64,000 bases of DNA from Leptolyngbya sp. NIES-3755 (GTDB lineage Bacteria > Cyanobacteriota > Cyanobacteriia > Leptolyngbyales > Leptolyngbyaceae), in NCBI GenBank assembly GCA_001548435.1, contig AP017308.1, forward strand, positions 372,001 to 436,000. The letters are read 5' to 3'. The notes beneath the pieces were generated by a model that had not been told where the DNA came from, made no database searches, and saw nothing but the letters and a program-made list of their open reading frames with translations. Positions within the stretch are counted from its first letter, which is position 1; the number at the start of each line of letters is the position of its first letter. The position numbers and the translations under genes are program-made. Positions 7,254-32,441 of this stretch are shown here, piece after piece.

Positions 7254-7644
7254 TACAGTGAAAAACCTAGAGAGTCAAATAGGGTCGAACCTGCATACAA
7301 AGCAGCACATCCACGACCCGTTTAGACCGGATCGAGGGCATCTGGGATACTACCACGTTTGGGCACAGGGCAGAATCGCTTTTGGTTAGAGATTATCGCA
7401 GCTTTGTATGCAAAATGTTACGGAAAATCAGGGGGAAACTTCAAGTCAGTGATGTAAGGGAATTCTGACTTGCCGGAGCGATTCAAAAAGAGATCGATCG
7501 TAATAAAAGAAAATCAATCAGAATAGTTCGGAACTTCCGAATACGGATCGCATCCTCGTTAAAATAGTTACGATTTATGTTTTGTTTCAATTGTTTGCAG
7601 TTTTCAACTCCGCTCCTCTAGTCGTTTGCCCATAGTTTTGACCA
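7254..7644. other. 391-bp intergenic region between divergent pyk and debranching-enzyme genes
   Basis: I see no gene here. It must hold the promoters of both flanking genes. The only striking element is the 12-bp inverted repeat at 7292-7303/7401-7412, described separately. The half next to the debranching gene is AT-rich. Confidence 0.5.
7292..7412 (-). promoter_or_regulatory. Long-range inverted repeat in the pyk leader
   Basis: TGCATACAAAGC (7292-7303) has its perfect inverse GCTTTGTATGCA at 7401-7412, with 97 nt between. Allowing one mismatch the arms reach 15 bp. It lies 39-160 bp upstream of the pyk start, so it could form a closing stem in a long 5' leader or be two operator half-sites. 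Confidence 0.4.
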
Positions 7645-9906: not shown

Positions 9907-9925
9907 ATAACGTTTGATGTTGGGG

Positions 9926-9956
9926 TCTCCTGTCAGTGTGATGGGAGATTTTTTTT
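9926..9956 (+). terminator. Terminator of the debranching-enzyme gene
   Basis: TCTCC (9926-9930) pairs with GGAGA (9944-9948), followed by a run of eight T. Confidence 0.7.
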
Positions 9957-9959
9957 GCG

Positions 9960-10133
9960 ATCGCTCAAACAGTCCAATCTTCGATCGATAGATTCGGATT
10001 CGTCTTGTCGTGCAGCATTCATCTGCTCTATCACTCTTACAAAATAGGGATCGGAAAATGCCTGCATATTCAATCCAAGGATTCTCTGGTTGACCTGGTT
10101 GAGTTGTTGTACTTTCCATCTGCACTGGAATGA
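9960..10133 (-). pseudogene. Frameshifted antitoxin-like gene fragment
   Basis: On the minus strand from about 10125, one frame reads ENPWIEYAGIF. The +1 frame then continues as SDPYFVRVIEQMNAARQDE. The composite matches the usual pattern of small cyanobacterial VapB-like antitoxins (N-P-W-x-x-x-A-G-I-F followed by D-P-x-F and an acidic helix). A one-base indel in the TTTTCC run near 10061 breaks it. The fragment overlaps the terminator region of the debranching gene. Confidence 0.45.
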
Positions 10134-10148
10134 TAGATCACGCCTAGT

Positions 10149-10247
10149 TTAGCGAAGAAGAACCAGGCGGGGAAGAGCGATCGAACCCTTGAATAACGCC
10201 GCACTAATCAGCAAATTCGTATCTAGAACAAATCGAACGCTACTCAT
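10149..10247 (-). pseudogene. Truncated PIN-domain (VapC-like) toxin
   Basis: The ATG at 10247 overlaps the antitoxin stop by 8 nt, the usual toxin-antitoxin arrangement. The product starts SSVRFVLDTNLLISAALF, the PIN-domain beta strand with the first catalytic aspartate (LDTN). After about 20 residues it degrades and stops at 32 residues. Another frame continues with FAKLGVIYHSSA, which looks like the next PIN segment, so a frameshift and a deletion are likely. The remaining acidic active-site residues are absent, so the product cannot be an active RNase. Confidence 0.6.
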
Positions 10248-10455
10248 CCAAGATCGATTGCAAAATTTCTGGAGTTAACCCGTTGGCTTCCGCTTCGTCG
10301 CTCAACTGATCCATCGTGGTCTGCAACTGGGTAATTTGCATGGCACACTTCAGCCACAAATTCATTAACGCCTGAATCTTTTGTTGCTGCTCTGGATTCG
10401 CAGAATGATAGGTCTTTGCGACATCTGCATCGACTTGAATGTTGATGGTCTCCAT
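10240..10455 (-). CDS. Antitoxin-like protein of the broken PIN toxin
   Basis: This 71-residue protein starts ETINIQVDADVAKTYHSA, followed by a helical stretch (NPEQQQKIQALMNLWLK) and an acidic C-terminus. This layout is common in cyanobacterial antitoxins paired with PIN toxins, where the N-terminal strand binds DNA or dimerises and the C-terminus wraps the toxin. Its stop overlaps the start of the truncated toxin at 10247. With the toxin dead, the antitoxin may be a relic or an anti-addiction factor against related systems. Confidence 0.6.
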   Translation of the reverse strand: METINIQVDADVAKTYHSANPEQQQKIQALMNLWLKCAMQITQLQTTMDQLSDEAEANGLTPEILQSILDE

Positions 10456-10603
10456 CCTGCACCATTTCGATTCTGGATGCCTTTAGTATAATTCCATCCC
10501 GACCCTGCTTCATTAAATTCAAGATTTCCAAACTCCGCATTCTGAACCATCTGTGTAATCCTGGATCATGCACAAATTGTTCTAGCTTTCTAAGGAACTC
10601 CTC

Positions 10604-11755
10604 ATGGACGACAAGCTGATGCTCATGATTCCAGGACCGACCCCGGTTCCGGAGCAGGTCTTATCGGCAATGGCAAAACATCCGATCGGACACCGCAGCG
10701 GCGATTTTGGCAAAATCGTGTCAGAAGTTACGCAAAATTTAAAATGGCTCCATCAAACCCAAAATGATTTACTCATCCTCGCGGCAAGTGGCACAGGCGC
10801 GATGGAAGCAGGGATTATTAACTTTCTCAGTCCAGGCGATCGCGTTTTAGTGGCAACCAACGGGAAGTTCGGAGAACGTTGGGCAGAAGTCACCGATGCG
10901 TATGGATTGCAAACTGAACGAGTCACGGCAGAGTGGGGTAAGCCGCTCGATCCCGAAGCGATTCGCGAAAAATTGGAAAGCGATCGAGAAAAACAAATTA
11001 AAGCGGTGATCGTGACCCACAGTGAAACTTCGACGGGTGTGATCAACGATTTGGAAACGATTAACCGTCATGTGAAAGCACATGGAGAAGCGTTGATCAT
11101 TGTGGATACTGTAACCAGTTTGGGGGCGACCAGTGTTCCCGTTGATGAATGGGGCTTGGACGTGGTGGCATCGGGATCGCAGAAAGGCTACATGATTCCG
11201 CCAGGATTGGGCTTTGTAGCAGTGAGTCCGAAGGCTTGGGAAGCTTACAAGACGGCGAAATTGCCTCGGTACTATTTGGATTTGGGCAAGTATCGGAAAT
11301 CGAGCGCGAAAGATACCACTCCGTTTACGCCTGCGATTAACTTGTTTTATGCAATGCAAGCCGCTCTTAGAATGATGCAGGCTGAAGGCTTAGAAAACAT
11401 CTTTGCGCGGCATGAACGGCAACGGCAAGCAACACGAGCAGCAGTCAAAGGATTGGGAATGCCTCTGTTTGCAGCAGATGAATGTAGCAGTCCTGCGATT
11501 ACAGCCGTCATGCCGAATGGAGTTGATGCAGAGAAAATTCGGAAAGTGATGCGGAATCGGTTTGATATTGCGCTGGCAGGGGGACAAGATCACCTCAGCG
11601 GTAAGATCTTCCGCATTGGACATCTGGGATTTGTTAGCGATCGAGACATTCTAACTGCGATCGCGGCTCTCGAAGCCACCTTGCAAGAACTCGGTTACGA
11701 CGGATTCACGCCGGGATCAGGAATTGCTGCCGCTGCGAAGGTGTTATCGAACTAA
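10604..11755 (+). CDS. Class V aminotransferase (alanine-glyoxylate / serine-pyruvate type)
   Basis: This is a 383-residue PLP enzyme. The N-terminal MIPGPTPVPEQVL and HR motif, the glycine-rich ASGTGAMEAG cofactor loop, the aspartate in IIVDTVTSLG, and the Schiff-base lysine in ASGSQKGYMIPPGLG all match the alanine-glyoxylate or serine-glyoxylate aminotransferase family. In cyanobacteria it is often labelled the soluble hydrogenase 42-kDa subunit, an old misnomer. A photorespiratory role, converting glyoxylate to glycine, is the likely one. The stop codon overlaps by 4 bp the stop of the convergent polysaccharide polymerase gene. Confidence 0.9.
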   Translation: MDDKLMLMIPGPTPVPEQVLSAMAKHPIGHRSGDFGKIVSEVTQNLKWLHQTQNDLLILAASGTGAMEAGIINFLSPGDRVLVATNGKFGERWAEVTDAYGLQTERVTAEWGKPLDPEAIREKLESDREKQIKAVIVTHSETSTGVINDLETINRHVKAHGEALIIVDTVTSLGATSVPVDEWGLDVVASGSQKGYMIPPGLGFVAVSPKAWEAYKTAKLPRYYLDLGKYRKSSAKDTTPFTPAINLFYAMQAALRMMQAEGLENIFARHERQRQATRAAVKGLGMPLFAADECSSPAITAVMPNGVDAEKIRKVMRNRFDIALAGGQDHLSGKIFRIGHLGFVSDRDILTAIAALEATLQELGYDGFTPGSGIAAAAKVLSN

Positions 11756-13179
11756 CGCTGATCGAGAATCGCATCGATCGACGGAGGATTAGCTGCTTGT
11801 TGGGATTCGTACAATCGAGCCGCAGCAGCTAATCCCATAAATCCCCAGAGAATAATGCCGAATGGAGTCAGCATCACGACGTTTAGACTGATTTGAGAAA
11901 CGGTGGCAAGGACGATCGCACGACAGGCTCCGACAAAGGGATCAGTCGAGGCTTGTCGAGTTTGGAGCGCATTCACGACGAGTAATCCCATTCCCGCAAC
12001 ATAAGGAATGGTGCCAAACCAGCCAAGATTTAGAAGCAGTGCAAGGATACCGCTATCGTTTCCGCCAATGTTGGCATCTCGAATCGCGAAACCTAAGCCG
12101 CGTCCTTCAAATTCGCTCAATGCCTCGGTTAAAAGGTTGGAATAGCCGAGACTACGATCGATAAAACTTCCATCCTGTTGCGCTGTAAAGAACGTTTGGA
12201 AGCGTGAACTAATCACCGAGGAGAACGGCTCGATCATCGTTAATGGCAATACGATCAGCGACATTAGCATTAACGTCACGATCAATCGCATCTGAAATTT
12301 CGGTTTCAATGTAGGAATAAAGACGATTAAACCGATAAACCAACTCAGCCAGGATGTTCTTGCCAACGTTAAGAGAAACGCAAGATAACCAAAGCCAGAG
12401 GATGCAATTTTTAACGGACTCTTAATCGCGAATAGTAATAGTAATCCTGCTACCATCGTGGTCGCGAAAGGTTGCGGAGAGTGCATCGTGCTAAAAACGC
12501 GAATTCCTAATGGATTTGGAGTTCCGAATGAATAGATTCGGAGATTGTTAATGAGATTCTGTAGCCAATACTGATCCCAAATTGGCGCGACCAAGAACTG
12601 AATCACACCGTAGACTCCCATGACCAAAACTCCCCAAAGAAATGTTTTCTCGGTAACGCGCTTAAGATCGGGAAATCTTCGCCAATGAGAAAAGACATAG
12701 TATCCAAATAAAACTGGAGTAATCCAGTTTAAGAATGGAATGATCACAGGTTGAATCGTATAAGTTACTACTCCAATACAGGTCGCATACAACACGGAAG
12801 CAATACACAAGACGAAAGGTAAGCCGTTTCCTTTGATTGCTTGTGGAAGTTGAATTAAGAATGTGAGAATCGGCAGAAATGCAACAAAGAATGGAGCCAA
12901 AAGAACTGGGTTTGGATCAATCCAGCCGATTTGCCAATCGATTAAGCGACGAACGAATGGCGTGAGAAACCAGAGCCACCAGGTGAATCCAATGTAGAAA
13001 ATTGGGTATCGGAAAAAGAGCAGTGCCCCCACAATTAAACTTCCAGCGGGAAAGGCGAGTCGGAGAATTGAGGCGACGTTGGCGACGAGACAAAGTGCTG
13101 TGAATCCGATGAGGCATCCGACGAGAAGCCACGGTTCAGAAAGTTGTGGGGATTTGGGTTGGGGTTGATTGATGTACAT
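11752..13179 (-). CDS. O-antigen ligase/Wzy-like polysaccharide polymerase
   Basis: This is a 475-residue integral membrane protein with about ten hydrophobic segments and a large extracytoplasmic loop near residues 310-360. That is the general layout of the O-antigen ligase/Wzy superfamily. These proteins are poorly conserved, so the call rests on topology and context: it is the last gene of a minus-strand exopolysaccharide cluster. It probably joins repeat units on the periplasmic face of the membrane. Confidence 0.7.
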   Translation of the reverse strand: MYINQPQPKSPQLSEPWLLVGCLIGFTALCLVANVASILRLAFPAGSLIVGALLFFRYPIFYIGFTWWLWFLTPFVRRLIDWQIGWIDPNPVLLAPFFVAFLPILTFLIQLPQAIKGNGLPFVLCIASVLYATCIGVVTYTIQPVIIPFLNWITPVLFGYYVFSHWRRFPDLKRVTEKTFLWGVLVMGVYGVIQFLVAPIWDQYWLQNLINNLRIYSFGTPNPLGIRVFSTMHSPQPFATTMVAGLLLLFAIKSPLKIASSGFGYLAFLLTLARTSWLSWFIGLIVFIPTLKPKFQMRLIVTLMLMSLIVLPLTMIEPFSSVISSRFQTFFTAQQDGSFIDRSLGYSNLLTEALSEFEGRGLGFAIRDANIGGNDSGILALLLNLGWFGTIPYVAGMGLLVVNALQTRQASTDPFVGACRAIVLATVSQISLNVVMLTPFGIILWGFMGLAAAARLYESQQAANPPSIDAILDQR

Positions 13180-13221
13180 GGATTGGAGTTGGGGTGTGAG
13201 ACTAGGAGCTTTGCTGCACCT

Positions 13222-14391
13222 TCAGTGTTCGGTTCTGTGCGAAGGGATGGCATTTGTAGGAGAATTCGATCGCATTTCCCAAGCCAGGTCATAAAGTTTG
13301 AGCGTATCCTGGGCAATCTGTTTCCAACTGTAGCGCTGAGCCGATCGGTAAGCGTTTTGTCGGAGTCGATCGAGTAACGTGCGATCCAAAATCAAGGTTT
13401 CGATCGCTTGCTCAAAGGCGGCTCGATCGCGACAAGGCACAATCAATCCAGTCTTGCCATCTTGGACAATTTCCATCGGTCCAGGTGCGGTCGTCGTGAC
13501 GGGAGCCAGTCCACATGCCATTGCTTCGACCAGTGCGACCCCGAAGCCCTCTGAAATCGTGGGTAAAACTTTGATGTGATGTCCGTTTAAGAGTTCTGGA
13601 AGTTGGTGATTTTCATAATACGGAATCACGGTGACGCGATCGCGCACTTCAGGATCGAAATCGGCATACACCTGATCGGCTGAAACCTCAGTGCCAAACA
13701 AGCTCACTTCTAATTTGGGATGGCGTTTGAGCAAGGCATTTAACGCAGGTGAGCCGTATTGAATCCCTTTGCGAACAATGTAGCTACTGACTTGAGCAAT
13801 TTTGATGGGTTCGCTCTCTGGCGGAGTCGGTTCAAATGGCAGATTTAGCATCGTTTCAGGAATGCCATTGGGTACGACATGAGCGCGATCGGGATTCACT
13901 CCTAAGTGTTCGATCGCATAGTGTCGATCGCGATGATTCAATAACAAAACAAGATCCGAGTGACGCATCGATGTTGCCGCTTCCCATAAGCGAATACTGC
14001 CACGGTAGAGCGGATATTTCCATTCGAGTTTGAGCGTTCCACGCTTGGCTTCTTCGAGGTATTCCAAATGTTCGATGTGTTCTAAACCGTGACAGCGAGC
14101 GACGAGTAACGGGCGAGATTTGCGGAATTTTTGCAGGATTGAACCCCAAATCCAGGCATCGGCAGTCGAAGCATCGATGACATCGATCGATGATTTTGCA
14201 ATTTTCGCGGCGGTGAATTCGGGGAAAAGAACGAATCTTTGCAGAGGTGATAATTGTTTTGGTAAATGATCGACTGAGTAAAATTCTGTCTGATGTCCAA
14301 GTTTTTCGTATTCTTGAATCAAGCGCCAGGTAACACCGGAACCACCCGCATTGGGATCAGCAGGATAATGGCATGTAAATAGAGTTTTCAT
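13222..14391 (-). CDS. Glycosyltransferase family 4 protein (first of the pair)
   Basis: This 389-residue GT-B enzyme has an N-terminal acceptor domain (HYPADPNAGGSGVTWRL) and a C-terminal donor domain. The latter carries the GT4 EX7E signature at SEGFGVALVEAMACGLAPV. The start is 2 nt after the stop of the upstream glycosyltransferase gene, so the two are probably translationally coupled. It likely adds a sugar to the lipid-linked repeat unit. Donor and acceptor are unknown. Confidence 0.88.
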   Translation of the reverse strand: MKTLFTCHYPADPNAGGSGVTWRLIQEYEKLGHQTEFYSVDHLPKQLSPLQRFVLFPEFTAAKIAKSSIDVIDASTADAWIWGSILQKFRKSRPLLVARCHGLEHIEHLEYLEEAKRGTLKLEWKYPLYRGSIRLWEAATSMRHSDLVLLLNHRDRHYAIEHLGVNPDRAHVVPNGIPETMLNLPFEPTPPESEPIKIAQVSSYIVRKGIQYGSPALNALLKRHPKLEVSLFGTEVSADQVYADFDPEVRDRVTVIPYYENHQLPELLNGHHIKVLPTISEGFGVALVEAMACGLAPVTTTAPGPMEIVQDGKTGLIVPCRDRAAFEQAIETLILDRTLLDRLRQNAYRSAQRYSWKQIAQDTLKLYDLAWEMRSNSPTNAIPSHRTEH

Positions 14392-14393
14392 GA

Positions 14394-15560
14394 TTAGGAA
14401 ATTACCAATTCAAGTAAGTTCTTTTCGATACCATCGATCAATTTCTCGTAACTAAAATAATCGGAAACATACTGACGGCATCTTGTTCCTAACGTCGGAT
14501 CTTTTTCTCGCCAATTAATCCTGCGATCGAGACAGTCTGCTAAATCTTGCTCATTGCCCGGTTCAAATAAGTAATTCGCGAATTCTTCCCTCAAAATCTC
14601 AGGATTTCCACCAATCCGACTTGCCACTTTTGGGACACCACAAGCCAACGATTCAAATAATCCTAAGCTGCAAGGTTCATTCCAAATGCTCGGCAGAACA
14701 TTCACATCACTGGCTTGATAAAGTGAAATTGGATTTGCCAAATGTCCGACGAATTCAACTTGATTAGAAACACCGAATGATTCTGCTAATTGAATCAGCG
14801 ATCGCAGATATTTCATGCCTTCGTCTTCACATTCATGCCCCTTGGAAAAACTGTAATGCGTGACGGGTTTTCCGGCAATCAATGTTTTAATTTTTCTTCC
14901 GGTCTTGATTAAGATCGCAGTTGCTTTAATCAGCGTTTCAAGTCCTTTTTCTCGGTCAATTCTACCGATATAAGAGATGATTCTAGTATCATCAGTGACA
15001 TTCCATTGCTGTCGTACCTGAGCTAGATTTTCAGCAGGTTTGAATTTATCTAAATCTACGCCATTGTAAACCACTCGAATACGATCGCGATTCATTCCAA
15101 ACTCAATCCAATCTCGCTTAGTCTGATTGGAAACTGCAATAAACCGATCGACATTTCGCAATCCAAATTTTCGTTGTCGATTTAATTGCAGCGGTGGAAG
15201 TTGCAGATAACAGACGTAGGGTAATCGACGGAAAAATGACAAGATCGAAGCGAATAATGAAAAGTGATAGTCATTACAAAAAATAATCGAATTCGGCTCG
15301 ATCGAGAGTTGCCCAATCTTGATCAAACTCGGTAGAAATCGCATCGTACTTTCCAGACTTCGCCAATCGAAACCATAAGCGCTGATTTGAATTGTGCGAT
15401 CGCAAATTGATCGATATTCTTCTAACAAATCTCCCGGTTTGAGATAGAGCAATGTAATGTGATGTCCTCTCGATCGCAGTCCTCGACAGATCGTTAGCAA
15501 GTTCAATTCTTGCCCTCCGCGCTGACTGGTAACATGATTTTCAAGAATAATGAGATTCAT
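14394..15560 (-). CDS. Glycosyltransferase family 4 protein (second of the pair)
   Basis: This is a 388-residue GT-B enzyme. The N-terminus has the GGQE motif (SQRGGQELNLL) typical of GT4. The donor domain shows SYIGRIDREKGLETLI and a C-terminal LGLFESLACGVPKV motif. The EX7E is less tidy here (NEPCSLGLFESLA), but the acidic residues are present. It starts 35 bp after the stop of the HepA-like ABC gene and belongs to the same transcript by spacing. Confidence 0.87.
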   Translation of the reverse strand: MNLIILENHVTSQRGGQELNLLTICRGLRSRGHHITLLYLKPGDLLEEYRSICDRTIQISAYGFDWRSLESTMRFLPSLIKIGQLSIEPNSIIFCNDYHFSLFASILSFFRRLPYVCYLQLPPLQLNRQRKFGLRNVDRFIAVSNQTKRDWIEFGMNRDRIRVVYNGVDLDKFKPAENLAQVRQQWNVTDDTRIISYIGRIDREKGLETLIKATAILIKTGRKIKTLIAGKPVTHYSFSKGHECEDEGMKYLRSLIQLAESFGVSNQVEFVGHLANPISLYQASDVNVLPSIWNEPCSLGLFESLACGVPKVASRIGGNPEILREEFANYLFEPGNEQDLADCLDRRINWREKDPTLGTRCRQYVSDYFSYEKLIDGIEKNLLELVIS

Positions 15561-23893: not shown

Positions 23894-26800
23894 CTAAGAG
23901 TCGAAACGGTTGGGCGACGCGAGATTTAAGAATCTTGTAAATTGCGGCTCGAACAACAATTTAATTGTTCCAGTGGGTCCGTTTCGATGTTTGGTGATGA
24001 GGACTTCGGCAATTCCTCGATCGGGTGTATCTTCGTTATAATATTCGTCGCGATAAAGCATCATTACGAGGTCAGCGTCTTGCTCGATGCTGTTGTGAAC
24101 GATGATGTCATCCGCCACAAAATTATGCAGTCCAGGAACGGTAAGATCAAACACTTCTTCCACTCCATCTGGAACGATCGACACAATTTCATCCCAATAG
24201 ACGTGGCTTTCCGCGAACTGATAAAGCCGATCGGATTTCACAACCTCTGCCAATCGTGCTGTCCGTTCACGGCTCAAGTTTTGACGATGCAATCCCGTAC
24301 CACAGTACTCAATCCCAAGTCCTGCCTGCATTTGACGGTGAGTTAAACCAACCTGTTGCATTGCAGGAAGCGCGTAGAGTGACCAAATCGCATGAGGAAC
24401 GACATCACGATTTGTATTCGCAACTCGAACGCTCAAATACTCCTTAATCACGCTCAAGCATTGCTGTTTATATTGTCCAACTGCACCAATTTCAGAGATA
24501 AATCGTTCCATATCGGATTTACCTGTGATCGTGACGTGATATTGATCTCGTCCTTTTCCAACTTGAGGCAGTCGTTTTAGACGAGCATTAATCTCGAATC
24601 GCAGTAGGAGAGACTGAACGCCTTGAGCGAGTTGTTTACTGCTGCTGGCATAGTACGCGATCGGGCGAGGTCGCTGACCTTGAACTAATTTAATGCAGCC
24701 GTCAGTACTCCACAAATGCCGCAAGAAGAGCGCGATCGCGGATTTCGATTGTTCAAAGACCAGCGCTGGAATAAATTTCTCATGCGATCGCAGTCCAAAC
24801 ACGCCTAAGTTATCCAACCATTGTGCGATTGGATTGCGAGTATTTCGGCTCAGGTTTTCGGTGGCACTCAAATACACTTGATACCAATCTCGTTCTTTCA
24901 CAATTCGAGGATTAAGTGCCTCACCGAATGCTTGAGTCGCCAGATTAGAAACAGCTTCAGCTAAGTCTAACTCTCTGGTTGTGTACTGAATGGCATGGCG
25001 TGGCAACGTACAACCATCGCCAATGAGATGCCCTAACAGCGCAAGTTTTTCATCGCTGATAGTTTGCGAAATTGAACTAGAAATCTGACGGGGCAGTGCA
25101 AGATGTTCTTTTTCGCTCAGTTCATCGAGTCGTTTCCACCCGTTAATCGTTAGAAACTTGTGATTTCCGGTTGCGCGAATCGATCGACCGCTACGAGTGG
25201 TCAATCTAAAAATAGGTTTCGTTCCAGTGGAAAACGCATGACTGACTTCTGCTCGTTCTAGCTGTAACGTTTCTTCGTTCAATGCCCAAACTGCGAAGCC
25301 AGATTTTCCGACAAGATCCGCGATCGAGACTCGTGCTCCTGTGTCCGCCAATGTCACCAGCGTATCTCCAGTCAAACAGCCCGATTCGCGCAAATCAGAC
25401 ATCATCGGACGTTTATCAGCACGGGATTCTACGCTTCGGCTCAATTGAGAGAGGGCAATCACAGGCACATTCAATTCACGGGCAAGCCCCTTCAATGCAC
25501 GAGTAATTCTTGCAAGTTCTTGAACTCGATTTTCACTACCGCTGCCTTCCATGAGTTGCAGGTAGTCGATCAAAATCATGCCGAGTGCGCCGCCTTGTTC
25601 GGCTTGTAGTTTGCGGGCACGCGATCGCATTTCCACAACACTAATATTCGGCGTATCGTCAATAAAGATTCTCAGTTCTGACAATCTGCCGATCGCATTA
25701 CTCAACGGCTCCCAATCCTGAGAGGCAATTCTACCCGATCGTAATCTTCCACTCTCGATCCGAGCTTCACTCGCCAGCAATCGCTGAACAATCTGCTCTT
25801 TCGACATTTCTAAACTAAATACTGCGACTGGAAGCTTGTATTGTGCTGCAATATTTCGCCCCAAACCCAGACAGAACGCCGTGTTGTGCACACAAATGTC
25901 ATTCGCAACAAAGTTATGAGTCTTGGGAATGGTCAGATCGTAAACTTGTTTTTCGCCTACGAACTCGATCGCAGTAATTTCATCCCAGTAGACTTCACTA
26001 TTTGCCAAATCCTGAAGAACTGCTGAACGTTGGGCACATAAGACTGAGCCAGCTTGTGCCTCATGAGTTGCTGAACCGAAAATCTCGATCGACTTTGCAT
26101 CAATCAGACCAAGTTTCCAAACTGGCTGAGCGGCAGAACTGAATTGAAGCTGACTAACGACTCCAAATCTCAGGAGTAGATGTTGAACTTGACGCGCTAA
26201 CTTTTCGTGATGTAGAACATCACCGTTTTCAAGTAGTCGATTCAGGAAAGTTGCTAATTGATCACGAACAAGCTGGAATACGATCGATGGAATTTCTGTC
26301 GTACTCAGTTCAATAAGTCGATCGATCTCACTTGGCGCAACTGAAACTTTTCCGAAAATGTCAATGATTCGAGGAACAGCAATACGATCGCCCACTCGCA
26401 ATGAGGACAAAGGCAACCATCCATCAAGCGTCAAATAAGGATGCGTTAGTGTGGTTTCGACTGTTCTGCCCAGGCGAGTTGTAACTCGGAAAACGGGCTT
26501 AATGCCGTCATCGATAAAGGCGGAAGGCTCGGTTACAGAGAATTTCCAGTTATCGTTGAGCGTTAGTAATTCCGCTTGGCGATGTTGGTAAATTTCTTCG
26601 ATTGTCGCGATCGAGCCGTCTGCTAATACAAGTTCTGCATCGTGAGCGAGGCATTTTCCCATTGACGGACGACCCGCCACGATGATCAAATCCGATCGCT
26701 GAAATCCCTGAGTTTTGCCATCCAAATCATAAAAGCCCGAAGCTAATCCGGGTAATGCCATTCCTGCCGATCGCTCTTCGATCTCAGCAAAGGTCTTGGT

Positions 26801-27313
26801 CAAAATATCCGCTGTTGCAATCAAGCCTTGATTCGGTCGAACTTGCGTAATACTAAAGACTTTCTGTTCAGCTTCGTCCAGAACCTTCTCTAATTCTTTT
26901 GCCGTTTCATGTCCAAGCTGTGAAATCTGATGTCCAGTGCTGATTAACTTCCGCCGCAAGTACTTATCAACAACCAGAGTCGCATATTGATCAATGTTGA
27001 CCGCGCTTACAGTTCGATCGACGAGTTGCACCAGTTTCGACTGTCCGCCTAATTTGTCGAGCAAACCGCGATCGTTTAACCAAGTTGAAACGCTCATTAA
27101 ATCGGTTGGAGATCCCTGCTGATGAAGGGCAACACAGGCTTTGTAGATCTCTTGGTGAGCGCTGCTGTAGAACGCTTCGGAGCGTAGAATATCGAGAATC
27201 CGCGTAATCGCTTCGGGATCGAGCAGAATTCCGCCTAAAATTGCCTCTTCAGCATCGAGATTCTGAGGGGGAATGCGATCGTTAACCGGTTGGAAATTGA
27301 AGTCTTGAACCAT
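23894..27313 (-). CDS. dnaB: Replicative DNA helicase DnaB with two inteins
   Basis: This is the fork helicase. The precursor is 1139 residues from the ATG at 27313; a TTG at 27382 lies inside a hairpin and is unlikely. Removing the two inteins (257 and 429 residues) leaves a 453-residue DnaB, the normal size. The N-terminal domain starts VNDRIPPQNLDAEEAILGG. Walker A, GRPSMGK then T, is split after the lysine by the first intein. The second splits the protein between SDLRESG and SIEQDADLVMML. Both insertion sites are known intein sites in DnaB. The helicase is active only after both splice. The gene follows rplI on the same strand. Confidence 0.97.
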   Translation of the reverse strand: MVQDFNFQPVNDRIPPQNLDAEEAILGGILLDPEAITRILDILRSEAFYSSAHQEIYKACVALHQQGSPTDLMSVSTWLNDRGLLDKLGGQSKLVQLVDRTVSAVNIDQYATLVVDKYLRRKLISTGHQISQLGHETAKELEKVLDEAEQKVFSITQVRPNQGLIATADILTKTFAEIEERSAGMALPGLASGFYDLDGKTQGFQRSDLIIVAGRPSMGKCLAHDAELVLADGSIATIEEIYQHRQAELLTLNDNWKFSVTEPSAFIDDGIKPVFRVTTRLGRTVETTLTHPYLTLDGWLPLSSLRVGDRIAVPRIIDIFGKVSVAPSEIDRLIELSTTEIPSIVFQLVRDQLATFLNRLLENGDVLHHEKLARQVQHLLLRFGVVSQLQFSSAAQPVWKLGLIDAKSIEIFGSATHEAQAGSVLCAQRSAVLQDLANSEVYWDEITAIEFVGEKQVYDLTIPKTHNFVANDICVHNTAFCLGLGRNIAAQYKLPVAVFSLEMSKEQIVQRLLASEARIESGRLRSGRIASQDWEPLSNAIGRLSELRIFIDDTPNISVVEMRSRARKLQAEQGGALGMILIDYLQLMEGSGSENRVQELARITRALKGLARELNVPVIALSQLSRSVESRADKRPMMSDLRESGCLTGDTLVTLADTGARVSIADLVGKSGFAVWALNEETLQLERAEVSHAFSTGTKPIFRLTTRSGRSIRATGNHKFLTINGWKRLDELSEKEHLALPRQISSSISQTISDEKLALLGHLIGDGCTLPRHAIQYTTRELDLAEAVSNLATQAFGEALNPRIVKERDWYQVYLSATENLSRNTRNPIAQWLDNLGVFGLRSHEKFIPALVFEQSKSAIALFLRHLWSTDGCIKLVQGQRPRPIAYYASSSKQLAQGVQSLLLRFEINARLKRLPQVGKGRDQYHVTITGKSDMERFISEIGAVGQYKQQCLSVIKEYLSVRVANTNRDVVPHAIWSLYALPAMQQVGLTHRQMQAGLGIEYCGTGLHRQNLSRERTARLAEVVKSDRLYQFAESHVYWDEIVSIVPDGVEEVFDLTVPGLHNFVADDIIVHNSIEQDADLVMMLYRDEYYNEDTPDRGIAEVLITKHRNGPTGTIKLLFEPQFTRFLNLASPNRFDS
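24092..25378 (-). mobile_element. DnaB intein 2 (RESG/SIEQ site), 429 residues, with LAGLIDADG endonuclease
   Basis: The intein begins CLTGDTLVTLA after SDLRESG and ends FVADDIIVHN before Ser. This is the same site as the Synechocystis DnaB intein, which I recall as also about 429 residues. Block B is TGNH. Both endonuclease motifs are visible, LLGHLIGDG and the partner LWSTDGC, each with its acidic residue. It may still be an active homing element. Confidence 0.93.
25883..26653 (-). mobile_element. DnaB intein 1 (P-loop site), 257 residues, endonuclease decayed
   Basis: The intein begins with Cys (CLAHDAELVLADG) right after GRPSMGK and ends with VHN before Thr. The block B TxxH motif is TLTH. 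Splicing residues (Cys1, His-Asn at the end, Thr+1) are intact. The central part lacks a first LAGLIDADG motif and keeps only a degraded second half (LATFLNRLLENGD, then EKLARQVQHLLLRF). It looks like a homing endonuclease caught in decay, so the intein is probably fixed and splicing-competent but no longer mobile. Confidence 0.92.
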
Positions 27314-27344
27314 GATGCTGAGAAGCGTATGGGGCGAGAATGTA

Positions 27345-27382
27345 TTGGGGGCTGAATCCAATTTCACGGACTCAACCCCCAA
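27345..27382 (-). promoter_or_regulatory. Strong hairpin in the rplI-dnaB junction
   Basis: On the minus strand the arms at 27368-27382 and 27345-27359 form a 15-bp stem with two G-U pairs (TTGGGGG pairing with CCCCCAA) and an 8-nt loop. It ends 32 bases before the dnaB ATG. No T-run follows, so it is not a standard terminator. It may stabilise or process the mRNA, or reduce read-through from rplI. Confidence 0.5.
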
Positions 27383-27426: not shown

Positions 27427-27885
27427 CTAAGCTGCAACGACTCGAATAATCACTTTTGAAGTGACTTCGGGGTGCAGTTTGATTTGCGCCGTGTACTCTC
27501 CGAGTTTGCTGATGTCGGGAAGCGTGATCGAACGTCGATCGACTTCTTGATTGGTCTTCGCCTTGATTGCATCTGCAACATCTTGGTTTGTGACCGTTCC
27601 GAAGATCGAATCGTTTTCACCCGCTTGTTTCTCGATATCAAATCCGCCAGCCGTTTCGATTTCTGCTGAGATCTGAACCGCTTGCTGTTTCAATTCGGCT
27701 AACCGTTGTTCTTCTAATTCGCGCCGACGAGCGACCTGTTTGAGAATCCCAGGATTGACCGTGGTTGCCTTGCCTTGGGGCACGAGATAGTTTCTTGCAT
27801 AACCGGGGGCGACTTCCACTAAGTCCCCAATGCGTCCTAATTTGCTTACGTTCTGCGTGAGAACAAGCTGAATCCGCTTCGCCAT
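27427..27885 (-). CDS. rplI: 50S ribosomal protein L9
   Basis: This 152-residue protein binds 23S rRNA. The N-terminus has the conserved LTQNVSKLGRIGDLVEVAPGYARNYLVP region (an rRNA-binding loop rich in G, K and R), then a long connecting helix and a small C-terminal domain ending VIIRVVAA. Length and order are normal. It lies 36 bp after the NRPS stop on the same strand and upstream of dnaB. The rplI-dnaB neighbourhood is a common bacterial arrangement, while the NRPS in front is unusual. Confidence 0.97.
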   Translation of the reverse strand: MAKRIQLVLTQNVSKLGRIGDLVEVAPGYARNYLVPQGKATTVNPGILKQVARRRELEEQRLAELKQQAVQISAEIETAGGFDIEKQAGENDSIFGTVTNQDVADAIKAKTNQEVDRRSITLPDISKLGEYTAQIKLHPEVTSKVIIRVVAA

Positions 27886-27921: not shown

Positions 27922-30900
27922 CTATTCTACCGGAAAGCGACCCGATTCGATTGGAAAGAGATGAGCGATTTTTTGGATTAAGATTTTCATCGCTGATTTA
28001 TCGACACAAGAGAGATGGGTTCCTGGGAGAATGTGAACGGTTAATTTATCTTCTGCTAAGGTGCGCCAACTGACCCACATTTCTGAAGGTTTTGCTTCCT
28101 CTTCGCAAATGAATAATTGCACTGGAAAGGCACTTGTGCGTGGATAATAGCGACCAACAATTCGACCATGCCGCCAATAAGGATCAGTGCTGCCTGTGAG
28201 TGGATCGATCGCGCTAAATAGAATCATTCGCACGATTAATTTGAGGCTCCAGATTACTTTTTTGAAGAATAAGATTGTACGATCGAACCATTTCACCGAT
28301 CGACATTCCACACCAAACGCATTCCAGCGCGTCAACAATTCCAGCAACAATCGAAAGTTTCGCACGACAGGTAATTTCTGAAAGATGGTGAATTGTTCTG
28401 GAATCGCCATCAAATTCCCAGGTGCGATTAATGCGAGTAGTGCGACTTCTTGTCCTTGAGCGTGAAGCTGTTGAGCAATTTCATACGCGACCGCAGCCCC
28501 CATCGAATAGCCCATCAGATAATACGGTCCTTCTGGTTGGAACTGGCGCATTTCTCGAACGGCGTGATCTGCCATCATTTCCAGCGTGGTACTAGAATCG
28601 ATCGATAACTCTTGAATTCCATAAATCGGTTGCTCTGAATCAAGATGAGCACGTAACCCCTCACAAAATCGAAAGGTTCCAGTCGCGCCAGGAATGCAGA
28701 AAAGTGGCGATCGACTCAAATCTCCTGCTTGAAATTGAATCAGTGCAGACGAAAAATCGGCTCGTTCATCTTCAAGGACTTGGCTCAATTGTCGAATCGT
28801 TGGAACTTGATAGAGCATCGCCATCGGAATTGGTTTGCCTAAAGCTTGCTCCATCTTTGCGGCTAATTGCAGCATTAACAGTGAATGTCCGCCGAGTTCA
28901 AAAAAGTCATCCTCTACGCTAATTGGCTCAACTTTGAGAACGTCTTGCCAGATTCGGACAAGCTGATGTTCGATCGAGGTTTGCGGAAGCGAAATTGTTC
29001 TCGTAGAAGTCGTAGGAGCAATCTCTAACAGTGCTTTACGATCGACCTTTCCATTCGCTGTCAAAGGAAATGCTGTAAGTTCAACGATCGCACTCGGAAC
29101 CATGTAGTTTGGCATCGATTGTTTCAGAAACCGCTGAAGTTCCTCTGGTTCAATCGATTGTTGAGCCACAATGTACGCGATCAATCGTTGTGACTGTGCA
29201 AGCACGATCGAATCTTTGACGGCTGAATGTTGATTGAGTGCGAATTCGATTTCTCCAAGCTCAATCCGAAAGCCGCGAATCTTCACTTGATCGTCATTTC
29301 TGCCCAAATATTCAAGCTTGCCATCTTGCCGATAGCGTACTAGATCGCCAGTTCGGTACAGTCTTTGAGGTGGCAATCCTGGAAACTGATGCTCAATGAA
29401 TTTCTCTTGAGTTTGTTCTGGGCGGCGTAGATAGCCTCTTGCGACTCCCAATCCACCAATGTAGAGTTCTCCAGCCACTCCAATTGGAACAGGCTGCATC
29501 TGTGCATCGAGAACATAGGTTTGAACATTATCGATCGCACTTCCGATCGAGAGTTCTCCTTGATCAAATCCCGATCGAATTGGATCATACACAGTCGCAA
29601 TCACCGTCGCTTCTGTCGGTCCATAAGTATTCAGCCAGCGTGGATAGTTCCCGACTCGCTCGAACCAGGTGAGATACGTCGATCGAGAAGCTTTTTCCCC
29701 ACCCACAACGACTAATCGAACGGCTGAAGGTAAGACCAAATCTAATTCTGTCAGTCCATAAACAATCTGATGCCAGAGTGCAGTCGGAAGATTCAGCACA
29801 GTAATTTGATAAGCTTCAACAAATTGTAAAAACTGTCGAGTAGACATCAAACAATCTGGAGAACGGAGTACTAGAGTTGCACCGCAGATCAGAGTTGGGA
29901 AGATTTCTTCGATCGCAATATCAAAGCTCAGTGCCGAAGCTTGCAAAACGCGATCGCATTCCTCTAATTCATATTCCCGAATTACGGCAAGATTGTGATT
30001 CACCATGCTCTGATGCTCAATCATTACGCCCTTCGGTTTTCCAGTCGAACCGGACGTGTAAATGACATAAGCAAGATTGTTGTTTTTCACATTGCTCTGA
30101 ACGGGTGCAGCACTAAAAGATTCAACCTCATCTAAATTCGTTAGTAACACTGTCACCTGAGCATCCGACATCAGCAATTCAAGTCGCTCTTTTGGATAGG
30201 TCGGATCAAGCGGAACGAACGCGCCACCAGCTTTCAAAATACCGAGAATGCCAACAATAAAATCAATCGATCGAGCCATGCAAATCCCGACTAGATCATC
30301 AGGCTGAACTCCTTTTGATTGTAAGAATCGTGCCAGTTGATGCGATCGCGCTTCTAATTCTTGATAGGTAATTTGTTCTTGATCGAATTGAACCGCGATC
30401 GCATTCGGTGTTCTCGCAGCTTGAGCCGAAATCAATTCATGCACACAGCTTGAAGGAATCGATTGAGCCGTATCATTCCACTCAACCAATAATTGAGATT
30501 GCTGTTCTGCTGGCAAAATTGAGAGATGCGAAATTCGTTCTTGAGGAGTACAAACAACACTCTCCAGTAAAGTCTCAAACTGTTGAGCCATGCGCGTGAT
30601 CAGGTCACTGTCAAATCGCTCTGCATTGTATTGCCAGACCAAATTGAATCGATCGCCCGCTTCTACCACTTGCAAATCTAGATCGAATGTTGCTCCACCT
30701 TGATGTTCGAGCAAATAAGGTGTGAGTGTAAGTTCCCCAAATGATTGCGTGATCCAACGATGTTTTTGCCAAGTAAACGTAACCGAAAATAGACGACTCG
30801 TTTTCTTCTGTTTGACTAATTCTTGGAGTGGCAGATCTTGATGCGCTTGTACTTCACGAACAATACGATCGACTCGCTCCAAAAGTGTTCCAAATTCAAG

Positions 30901-31818
30901 TTCTGCCTGCATCGGAACTCGCAAAGGAACCATATTCGAGAAATAGCCAATCACATCCTGAAACGAATCCGTTCCCCAACGTCCCGCCATTGCAGTCCCG
31001 ATCGCTAAATCACTCTCACCCGTATAGCGATACAGCAACACCAAAAACGCTGTGAGTAGAACACGATAGAGACTATAACCCTGTGATTTTAGTGACTCAA
31101 TCAAATGAGCGGGCAGTAGGAAAGATTGTGTCTCACTTGTTGTTTGAGAAGAAGACTGACCCGGCAAATCAAGCTCTGAAAGTTCACCTGCTAGTTGCTG
31201 ATTCCAGAAATCGATCAACTCTTTTCCGCGATCGCAACTCAGCATCTCACTCTGCCAATTCACATAATCGGCATAAGTCGTTGCTTGCACCGCGCTTCGC
31301 GTTCGCGATTCCACAGATTTCCCTTGATAGAACCGTCCCCAATCCCGAATCAGCAGATCAAACGTCCACATATCCCCGGCAATATGATGCAAAGTAATCA
31401 CTTGAATGAACTCCTGATCACTCCGCTGAAACAAGCTCACTCGGATTGCAGGTTCCGTCTCTAAGTGAAACAGTTTCGTCGTCTCAGCAAAAATCTGAGT
31501 TTCTAAAGTTTCCTCACTCCAATCTGTGGCTTGAATGTATTGCAGTGGAATCTTGCCAGATTGAACGACTCGAAACGGTTGCCCATTCGCCTCAACATAG
31601 TGCGATCGCAGGATCGAATGTGCCTGAAACGCTTGATCCCAAGCCTGCTTCCAAGCTCCCACATCCAACACACCTTCAATCCGAATCGTGTGATAGATGT
31701 TGTAAGCTGGACTGTCTGGATCAAGCTGATAAAGAAACCATAACCCTTGTTGCTGCCAAGAAAGCGGAAATTGAACTGAAACTTGGGTGAATGAATCAAG
31801 TGCTGTCAAACTTTGCAT
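27922..31818 (-). CDS. Single-module NRPS: condensation, adenylation, carrier, thioesterase
   Basis: This 1298-residue enzyme has four parts. Condensation (about 15-440) carries HHIAGDM with His144, His145 and Asp149. Adenylation (about 465-870) carries VIYTSGSTGKPKGVM, a NTYGPTEAT loop and GELYIGG. The carrier domain has its phosphopantetheine serine at 979 (FELGGHSLL). The thioesterase has the nucleophile Ser1105 in GYSMG and a late His in GTHLSCVD. With one module it probably joins an external acyl or amino partner to one amino acid and releases the product. The core around FDIAIEE departs from the usual residues, so I do not predict the substrate. No tailoring genes lie nearby. Confidence 0.9.
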   Translation of the reverse strand: MQSLTALDSFTQVSVQFPLSWQQQGLWFLYQLDPDSPAYNIYHTIRIEGVLDVGAWKQAWDQAFQAHSILRSHYVEANGQPFRVVQSGKIPLQYIQATDWSEETLETQIFAETTKLFHLETEPAIRVSLFQRSDQEFIQVITLHHIAGDMWTFDLLIRDWGRFYQGKSVESRTRSAVQATTYADYVNWQSEMLSCDRGKELIDFWNQQLAGELSELDLPGQSSSQTTSETQSFLLPAHLIESLKSQGYSLYRVLLTAFLVLLYRYTGESDLAIGTAMAGRWGTDSFQDVIGYFSNMVPLRVPMQAELEFGTLLERVDRIVREVQAHQDLPLQELVKQKKTSRLFSVTFTWQKHRWITQSFGELTLTPYLLEHQGGATFDLDLQVVEAGDRFNLVWQYNAERFDSDLITRMAQQFETLLESVVCTPQERISHLSILPAEQQSQLLVEWNDTAQSIPSSCVHELISAQAARTPNAIAVQFDQEQITYQELEARSHQLARFLQSKGVQPDDLVGICMARSIDFIVGILGILKAGGAFVPLDPTYPKERLELLMSDAQVTVLLTNLDEVESFSAAPVQSNVKNNNLAYVIYTSGSTGKPKGVMIEHQSMVNHNLAVIREYELEECDRVLQASALSFDIAIEEIFPTLICGATLVLRSPDCLMSTRQFLQFVEAYQITVLNLPTALWHQIVYGLTELDLVLPSAVRLVVVGGEKASRSTYLTWFERVGNYPRWLNTYGPTEATVIATVYDPIRSGFDQGELSIGSAIDNVQTYVLDAQMQPVPIGVAGELYIGGLGVARGYLRRPEQTQEKFIEHQFPGLPPQRLYRTGDLVRYRQDGKLEYLGRNDDQVKIRGFRIELGEIEFALNQHSAVKDSIVLAQSQRLIAYIVAQQSIEPEELQRFLKQSMPNYMVPSAIVELTAFPLTANGKVDRKALLEIAPTTSTRTISLPQTSIEHQLVRIWQDVLKVEPISVEDDFFELGGHSLLMLQLAAKMEQALGKPIPMAMLYQVPTIRQLSQVLEDERADFSSALIQFQAGDLSRSPLFCIPGATGTFRFCEGLRAHLDSEQPIYGIQELSIDSSTTLEMMADHAVREMRQFQPEGPYYLMGYSMGAAVAYEIAQQLHAQGQEVALLALIAPGNLMAIPEQFTIFQKLPVVRNFRLLLELLTRWNAFGVECRSVKWFDRTILFFKKVIWSLKLIVRMILFSAIDPLTGSTDPYWRHGRIVGRYYPRTSAFPVQLFICEEEAKPSEMWVSWRTLAEDKLTVHILPGTHLSCVDKSAMKILIQKIAHLFPIESGRFPVE

Positions 31819-31992
31819 GGGAATGAAACAGTCTGTGCGCGAGGATCTTCAGGTTGCGCCATTCACAGCGAGTTACACCGCAACCCTATCCATGCCCAAA
31901 CCGTTCAATTGCTGGGAACAATGCTCGATCGTGAACCTGTAGAAGTTAAAAAATCCGTGTATGCTCAAACCGTGGAAACCCAACCTGGGTAG
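31813..31992 (+). pseudogene. Possible short coding remnant upstream of the NRPS
   Basis: The frame has no good ATG except near its end (31921), and overlaps the NRPS start on the other strand. The stretch NPIHAQTVQLLGTMLDREPV reads like real protein, which is why I list it. It ends at TAG 31990-31992. It may be a remnant of a deleted gene or chance. Confidence 0.2.
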
Positions 31993-32370
31993 AGAAACAT
32001 TCCCTGAGCTTGCTCTCAACCTGGTCTGCCTAGAGATCACAGCTAAGAGCAATATTTTTTGATGCTGAATTTAATTCTACAAAGCTAGGAATTCGATCGT
32101 CTACAGTACGCAATAGGTGTTCGTTTCAACTGCATTTCACAGTATTAAGACGAACTCTTTATGCCAAAAACCGCGATCGTCTCTCACCCCGCTAATCTCG
32201 AATTTCGCTTCCTATGAGAACTTCACCCGTGAGATCAGCTTACTAGGGTCTTTTTCTATCGTTGTACCATCCTGCAATCAATGTCTAACAAGATACGATC
32301 GCGACCCTAATTTCTAAAAATGGGGTTTCAAATTCCAAAAAAGGTGTTATTCTTAAAAAACACAAAACGT
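31993..32370. other. 378-bp intergenic region before the tRNA
   Basis: No gene or recognised RNA motif is visible. The region is moderately AT-rich and contains short imperfect hairpins only. The promoter for the tRNA must be in its last part; the NRPS promoter probably lies just to its left, overlapping 31819-31992. Confidence 0.4.
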
Positions 32371-32441
32371 GCGGGCATAGTTTAGTGGTAAAACACCTGC
32401 CTTCCAAGCAGGATATCCGGGTTCGATTCCCGGTGCCCGCT
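32371..32441 (+). tRNA. tRNA-Gly (anticodon TCC)
   Basis: The acceptor arms GCGGGCA and TGCCCGC pair perfectly. The D-arm is TAGTTTAGTGGTA. The anticodon stem CCTGC/GCAGG holds the loop CTTCCAA, and the T-arm has GGTTCGATTCC. The CCA end is not encoded. It decodes GGA and GGG codons. Confidence 0.97.

What the first reader, a model, noticed from the sequence alone, without database searches (positions are those of the whole stretch)
27922..31818. Orphan single-module NRPS directly in front of rplI-dnaB
The C-A-T-TE enzyme ends 36 bp before rplI on the same strand, with no tailoring or transport gene near it. An NRPS next to ribosomal protein L9 and the helicase is unexpected. Read-through could tie core genes to secondary-metabolite expression. 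One module with a leading C domain implies an acceptor delivered from elsewhere.
Basis: partly seen in the sequence, partly recalled or inferred. Interest (0 to 1): 0.55.

Follow-up and report, generated by a model that had tools for sequence, protein, structure and literature searches.

The report
Orphan single-module peptide synthetase beside rplI
A cyanobacterial chromosome carries one intact lone peptide-making enzyme between a tRNA gene and a ribosomal-protein gene; it is probably a small N-acylating enzyme for a lysine- or ornithine-like amino acid, and its place next to rplI looks incidental rather than regulatory.

Summary
In detail: 27922-31818 (-) encodes a 1,298-aa C-A-T-TE NRPS ending 36 bp before rplI-dnaB, with no tailoring, carrier or transport gene among the neighbours scanned. 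It is a real gene under purifying selection: full-length orthologs (70-86% identity, dN/dS 0.12-0.16) in 3 of 7 other genus genomes; outside the genus nothing above 46% identity in 34 family genomes. In three genomes it lies between tRNA-Gly and rplI; three relatives show that spacer empty; a fourth ortholog is on a contig without rplI.

rplI keeps its own promoter-like box, [GA]GTANNAT 36-60 nt before its ATG, in 13 of 23 other-genus loci (shuffles: mean 0.67, maximum 5). Here the NRPS's last codons run over it. A regulatory tie is unsupported, though no terminator was found.

The A-domain code DIENVGTVIK suggests a lysine/ornithine-type substrate. The C domain groups with three others, one beside a free ACP and acyl ligase in an isonitrile-lipopeptide-like operon. 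G002 shows only four other carrier domains. Best reading: an acyl donor in trans, an N-acyl diamino acid as product. The TE lacks the usual Asp in all four orthologs. New member of a known kind.

The parts
27922..31818 (-). single-module NRPS, C-A-T-TE, 1,298 aa
   Evidence: orthologs; dN/dS
30487..31770 (-). condensation domain (aa 17-444), active-site motif HHIAGDM
   Evidence: motif identical in 4 of 4 orthologs; tree
29047..30426 (-). adenylation domain (aa 465-924), specificity code DIENVGTVIK
28777..28965 (-). thiolation (PCP) domain (aa 952-1014), GGHSLL
27949..28731 (-). thioesterase domain (aa 1030-1290), GYSMG nucleophile, PGTH histidine, no Asp at the usual position
27924..27929 (-). 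TAGAAT, inferred -10 box of the rplI promoter, overlapped by the last NRPS codons and stop
   Evidence: sequence; conservation; not mapped by experiment
27427..27885 (-). rplI (ribosomal protein L9)
23894..27382 (-). dnaB ORF with two inteins
31933..32060 (-). stretch of the NRPS leader that aligns among the four orthologs; an upstream TTGAAA/TACTGT pair at about 32103-32129 is a candidate NRPS promoter
   Evidence: promoter inferred by eye
32371..32441 (+). tRNA-Gly (TCC), the other border of the NRPS

Best explanation
An intact single-module NRPS, kept under selection, that acts as a stand-alone N-acylating synthetase. Its A domain loads a Lys/Orn-type diamino acid onto its own T domain; its C domain joins an acyl group brought in trans on a free-standing carrier (most likely the fatty-acid ACP, or acyl-CoA) to that amino acid; its TE releases the N-acyl (possibly bis-acyl or lactam) product. 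It is expressed from its own promoter on the tRNA-Gly side. It lies in the spacer between tRNA-Gly and rplI without having destroyed the rplI promoter, so the link with rplI-dnaB is positional. Shown: domains, selection, presence and absence at the locus, rplI leader conservation. Inferred: substrate, donor, product, promoter use.
For: Orthologs with dN/dS 0.12-0.16 and conserved motifs. Code DIENVGTVIK in 3 of 4 orthologs, DIENIGTVIK in the fourth. In PMC10522769 (passages) Asp and Glu at code positions 1 and 3 bind the two amines of ornithine or lysine, and codes DLEDIGTV(T/V/I)K and DIESIGTVTK are listed for untested homologs; the proposed AptA Lys code is DTEQIGSII (PMC9564503 Table 3, passages). 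The A domain sits in a 14-row clade (100/99) in which 13 of 14 codes have Glu at position 3, against 0 of the 24 other A domains. The C domain is in a 7-row clade (100/99) with L055, L057 and the first C of L066; L055 stands in an operon with TauD, FcoT, a free ACP whose ORF overlaps the NRPS start by 4 bp, and an acyl ligase. Carrier inventory: G002 has 5 PP-binding matches: this NRPS, two of an NRPS pair, a 99-aa ACP and an 804-aa ORF. One PPTase in each of 8 genomes. rplI leader.
Against: No product, assay or transcript. The code is identical to no cited one. The C-domain tree holds 44 domains from loci fetched here and no biochemically typed starter C; N-terminal C domains, among them that of the pair's first protein (L027, L112), also occur in the other, 22-row clade, so the grouping is not proof of an acyl donor. 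L057 shares the C clade but has another code, DASTIAAVCK. Lack of a docking domain is not special: L057, L066 and the pair's first protein show no TubC_N either. G000 and G001 have 15 and 20 carrier matches, so other donors exist there. The TE lacks the usual Asp. The A-domain tree puts G002, not G001, outermost among the orthologs (98/87), unlike the C-domain and species trees. Read-through into rplI is not excluded.
Confidence: 0.5

Rival explanations
1. It works in trans with another NRPS of the same genome (above all the C-A-T protein of the two-gene pair), adding a terminal basic residue and releasing the peptide.
For: The pair (1,069 + 1,802 aa in G000, 1,061 + 1,791 aa in G002) occurs in two genomes with this NRPS; G005 has ORFs of 1,059 and 1,223 aa with carriers on separate contigs. 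Full-length relatives L056, L058, L059 and L060 lie beside an upstream NRPS gene, as terminal modules do.
Against: ORF pairs of like size occur in G003, G004 and G007, which lack this module (judged by size only), and in G000 the pair ends in its own TE. In G001 no such pair was recognised from the ORF sizes. No recognised docking domain on this module.
Confidence: 0.2
2. The NRPS is placed to couple with rplI-dnaB: read-through from its promoter adjusts L9 and helicase supply.
For: 36-bp gap, same strand, no terminator-like site listed in the gap; adjacency in G000, G001 and G002.
Against: rplI leader and -10-like box kept with and without the NRPS and in 13 of 23 loci of other genera; G003, G004 and G007 lack the NRPS there, and in G005 it is on another contig.
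Confidence: 0.08
3. A recent horizontal insertion, or a decaying remnant of a lost cluster, without function.
For: Absent from the locus in G003, G004 and G007; no match above 46% identity in the 34 other family genomes; TE lacks the usual Asp; A-domain tree of the orthologs departs from the species tree.
Against: Open frames and dN/dS 0.12-0.16 in all six ortholog pairs; codon use within the range of 24 window genes; C-domain branching agrees with the single-gene species tree.
Confidence: 0.1

Closest known systems
Isonitrile-lipopeptide synthetase ScoA and its cyanobacterial look-alike in L055
   Same: one module (ScoA recalled; L055), diamino-acid type A code and a C domain in the same clade as L055; the ScoA assay used lysine and the separate proteins ScoB and ScoC (PMC7949033, passages; that ScoB is the ACP and ScoC the ligase is recalled)
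   Different: no TauD, FcoT, ACP or acyl ligase beside it; no FcoT match in 8 genus genomes, but the tool's controls did not ring; ends in a TE, whereas the ScoA assay contained NADPH (a reductase end is recalled)
EntF (enterobactin) and AB3403 (PDB 4zxh), free C-A-T-TE modules
   Same: same domain order (recalled for EntF) and size (1,295 and 1,320 aa); matches along most of the length; TE aligns along its length with 4zxh
   Different: NCBIfam EntF score 479 against a cut-off of 2,400; the A code is unlike the Ser code DVWHVSLI quoted in PMC3207962; no MbtH in 8 of 8 genus genomes
Lys module of anabaenopeptin synthetase (AptA)
   Same: Asp, Glu, Gly, Ser/Thr and Ile at matching code positions
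   Different: AptA's module carries an epimerase and lies in a six-module line

Membership tests
NRPS (complete C-A-T-TE module) | all four domains present, with C, T and TE-nucleophile motifs | tested here: met
NRPS (complete C-A-T-TE module) | canonical Ser-Asp-His triad of the TE | tested here: not met
   Asp position is Ala or Gly in 4 of 4 orthologs; Asp in 11 and Glu in 1 of the 12 other TEs aligned. A conserved Glu (CEEEA/SEDEL) may replace it (inference)
NRPS (complete C-A-T-TE module) | PPTase available | tested here: met
   1 match in each of 8 genomes
Isonitrile lipopeptide synthetase (ScoA type) | Lys/Orn-type adenylation code | tested here: inconclusive
   DIENVGTVIK is of the diamino-acid type; no assay
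Isonitrile lipopeptide synthetase (ScoA type) | operon with TauD-type oxidase, FcoT, ACP and acyl ligase | tested here: not met
   none among the neighbours scanned; present in L055
EntF type | Ser-specific A domain | tested here: not met
   code DIENVGTVIK against DVWHVSLI for Ser; by sequence only
EntF type | aryl-carrier partner | not tested
   not searched by name; the carrier inventory is
rplI-dnaB operon member | transcribed with rplI from a shared promoter | not testable with these tools
   no transcript data; rplI leader kept without it

The most novel reading that the evidence does not exclude
A stand-alone synthetase, related in its C domain to an isonitrile-lipopeptide-like enzyme but without a dedicated ACP, ligase or oxidase beside it, that takes acyl chains straight from the housekeeping fatty-acid ACP to make a lyso-ornithine- or acyl-lysine-type lipid with a TE whose acid residue has moved: an NRPS route to an amino-acid lipid in cyanobacteria.
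Probability: 0.25. Interest if true: 0.5.

Novelty: new member of a known kind. Interest (0 to 1): 0.3.

Why it matters
It shows that a suspicious core-gene neighbour can be an incidental guest: the rplI promoter was kept while a 4-kb gene came to lie against it, so close that its last codons cover the -10-like box. If the substrate prediction holds, a single gene with few possible donors (four other carrier matches in G002) is a small, testable case of NRPS chemistry fed by primary metabolism.

Tried and rejected
Recent foreign origin: not favoured, on codon use and GC and ortholog divergence. Defence-system membership: no PADLOC match. RNA element in the NRPS leader: no Rfam match up to E 10; single-sequence folds of four leaders did not agree. 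MbtH helper: none in 8 genomes (the control rang in 2). Plasmid origin: 2,973 plasmid records match, all under 60% identity. Wider close relatives: one locus in genome contigs, the LEGE 13415 ortholog. Exact adenylation codes in print: 0 papers; 1 paper; only DAESIGSV (BacB Lys) turned up, in PMC3207962 (passages); PMC2739229 (passages) gave no usable code. A paper on this gene: one search gave 0; one search gave 3 listings, of which PMC10536570 (passages) gives only cluster counts for Leptolyngbya boryana. Searches gave listings; of these I opened PMC9564503, PMC10522769, PMC2739229 and PMC7949033 only. One search gave 0 on cyanobacterial NRPS-made ornithine lipids. Structure prediction was not run: the TE question needs coordinates, which the tool's description does not promise, and only window-derived and the search for related loci sequences seemed allowed in the alignment. 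The order-level search returned the same 42 genomes as the family. In the phylum search 2 candidates per genome were scored, so 11 of 386 at E<=1e-235 may undercount.

Rows dropped: G006 is not counted as lacking the gene at the locus, because its assembly has no rplI match. In one search, 39 of 42 genomes had rplI; loci were given for 30, and these 30 were used (7 genus, 23 others).

Full report
Observation. The window belongs to a 6.76-Mb, four-contig genome. It is cyanobacterial: a near relative is the record Pseudanabaenaceae cyanobacterium LEGE 13415. ORF 27922-31818 (-) is a 1,298-aa C-A-T-TE NRPS. rplI starts 36 bp after its stop and dnaB follows. Of nine neighbouring proteins scanned, two are rplI and dnaB and the other seven include no tailoring, carrier or transport gene.

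Who has it. Full-length orthologs occur in 3 of 7 other genus genomes: G005 (86%), G002 (81%) and G001 (70%). In a family search of 42 genomes at E<=1e-215 no match outside the genus exceeded 46% identity. In 386 phylum genomes, with 2 candidates scored per genome, the highest identity outside the family was 47%. The six pairwise dN/dS values of the four orthologs are 0.12-0.16. Codon-usage distance is 3.96, within the range of the 24 window genes compared (2.37-6.64), but long genes should give small distances and dnaB gives 2.9; GC (0.455) and GC3 (0.402) are at the low side.

Locus history. In G000, G001 and G002 the NRPS lies between tRNA-Gly(TCC) and rplI. In G003, G004 and G007 the tRNA-Gly to rplI spacer is short and empty. 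In G005 the NRPS is on a 5.7-kb contig without rplI, from a low-coverage draft by its record title; its 245 bp of upstream sequence resemble that of G000, and rplI stands on another contig after tRNA-Gln. G006 has no rplI match in its assembly, so its absence says nothing. A pyruvate-kinase tree gives ((((G000,G005),G002),(G003,G004)),G007) with (G001,G006) outside; supports run from 54 to 100. The C-domain tree of the orthologs agrees; the A-domain tree puts G002 outermost (98/87). One early gain with later losses, two gains at one site, or some exchange of the gene all remain possible.

rplI promoter. Without the NRPS the rplI leader reads ...CTCCGGTAAAATAGACTATTTGTGCGG... (G003, G004). In G000 the NRPS ends in ...CGCTTTCCGGTAGAATAG, so its last codons and stop lie over the same box; by eye, 29 of 32 bases there match the NRPS-free rplI leader of G005. 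G001 and G002 stop before the box. The box [GA]GTANNAT at 30-80 nt before the ATG is found in 6 of 7 genus loci (G002 has TGTAGAAT) and 13 of 23 loci of other genera; windows further upstream give 1 and 0 of 23, and 1,000 mononucleotide shuffles gave a mean of 0.67 and a maximum of 5. The loci are related, so these counts are not independent, and 10 of 23 lack the box. No terminator-like site was listed in the gap, so read-through stays possible, but a regulatory tie is not needed to explain rplI expression.

Substrate. The code, read by alignment, is DIENVGTVIK (DIENIGTVIK in G002). In the poly-ornithine synthetase paper PMC10522769 (passages) code positions 1 and 3 (Asp, Glu) bind the two amines, position 2 is proposed to set chain length (Phe for Dap/Dab, Met for Orn, Ala for Lys), and codes such as DLEDIGTV(T/V/I)K and DIESIGTVTK are listed among untested homologs. 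The paper also notes that some ornithine domains carry the acid at another position. The proposed Lys code of AptA is DTEQIGSII (PMC9564503, passages). The A domain lies in a 14-row clade (100/99) in which 13 of 14 codes have Glu at position 3, against 0 of 24 outside. I predict Orn or Lys; this is not tested.

Donor. The C domain keeps both histidines and the Asp (HHIAGDM in 4 of 4 orthologs). Among 44 C domains from fetched loci, the four orthologs form with L055, L057 and the first C of L066 a 7-row clade (100/99), apart from a 22-row clade. The 22-row clade is mixed: it holds inner C domains and also N-terminal ones, such as that of the pair's first protein. L066 C1 is the first domain of its ORF, and the upstream genes scanned are not NRPS. 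L057 is the only ORF with P0001-like domains in its 20 kb; its A code differs (DASTIAAVCK) and its neighbours are glycosyltransferases, sulfotransferases and a deacetylase. L055 has an ACP whose ORF overlaps the NRPS start by 4 bp, an acyl ligase, an FcoT thioesterase and a TauD oxygenase. That this is the gene set of isonitrile-lipopeptide operons rests partly on PMC7949033 (passages) and partly on recall. The window's genus gave no FcoT match (0 of 8), but the tool's control did not ring, so absence is not proven. Carrier inventory: G002 shows five PP-binding matches: this NRPS, two of the NRPS pair, a 99-aa ACP and an 804-aa ORF. The G000 ORF of like size (812 aa) is an AMP-ligase, carrier and acyltransferase fusion. 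Hence the donor reading: acyl from the fatty-acid ACP or CoA, less likely from the pair or the fusion.

Release. The TE keeps GYSMG and the histidine, but the Asp expected about 30 residues after the nucleophile (LLD in relatives) is Ala or Gly in 4 of 4 orthologs, while 11 of 12 other TEs have Asp and one has Glu. A conserved Glu nearer the C-terminus could serve; this is inference.

Verdict. An ordinary kind of enzyme in an unusual seat. The seat is shared by part of one genus, probably because it is a tolerated spacer. The most interesting open point is the donor.

Noticed in passing
window 23894-27382 (-): The dnaB ORF holds two inteins (insertions about aa 247-480 and 674-1091; Intein_splicing twice, LAGLIDADG in the second). 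dnaB of G002, G003, G004 and G007 has none (453-474 aa); G001 has an 892-aa form that looks to hold one; G005 was not seen.
   Followed up: partly
L055 (G420) 6617-14541: Isonitrile-lipopeptide-like operon in a cyanobacterium: TauD, FcoT, ACP, C-A-T-TE NRPS, acyl ligase, with a TonB receptor and an MFS gene nearby.
   Followed up: partly
L055 797-4552: A BrxC/BrxD-type ATPase gene and a DEAD-box helicase gene stand a few kb from that operon, possibly a BREX-like defence locus.
   Followed up: no
L110 2560-4998 (G000 C1 about 1.93 Mb): 812-aa fusion of an AMP-ligase-like part, a carrier domain and Acyl_transf_3; PP-binding ORFs of similar length (765-822 aa) occur in 6 of 7 genus genomes searched.
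   Followed up: no
window 31933-32060 (-): Stretch of the NRPS leader that aligns among orthologs; a short stem is suggested by eye in G000 (TTGCTCT/AGAGCAA) and G005 (GACTCT/AGAGTC), but folds did not agree and Rfam gave nothing.
   Followed up: partly
G000 contig C3 (L029, L033): 98-kb contig rich in large NRPS genes; its first 19.9 kb had no long near match in the plasmid collection (5 records, about 1% of the query or less; records of the own genome may be left out).
   Followed up: no
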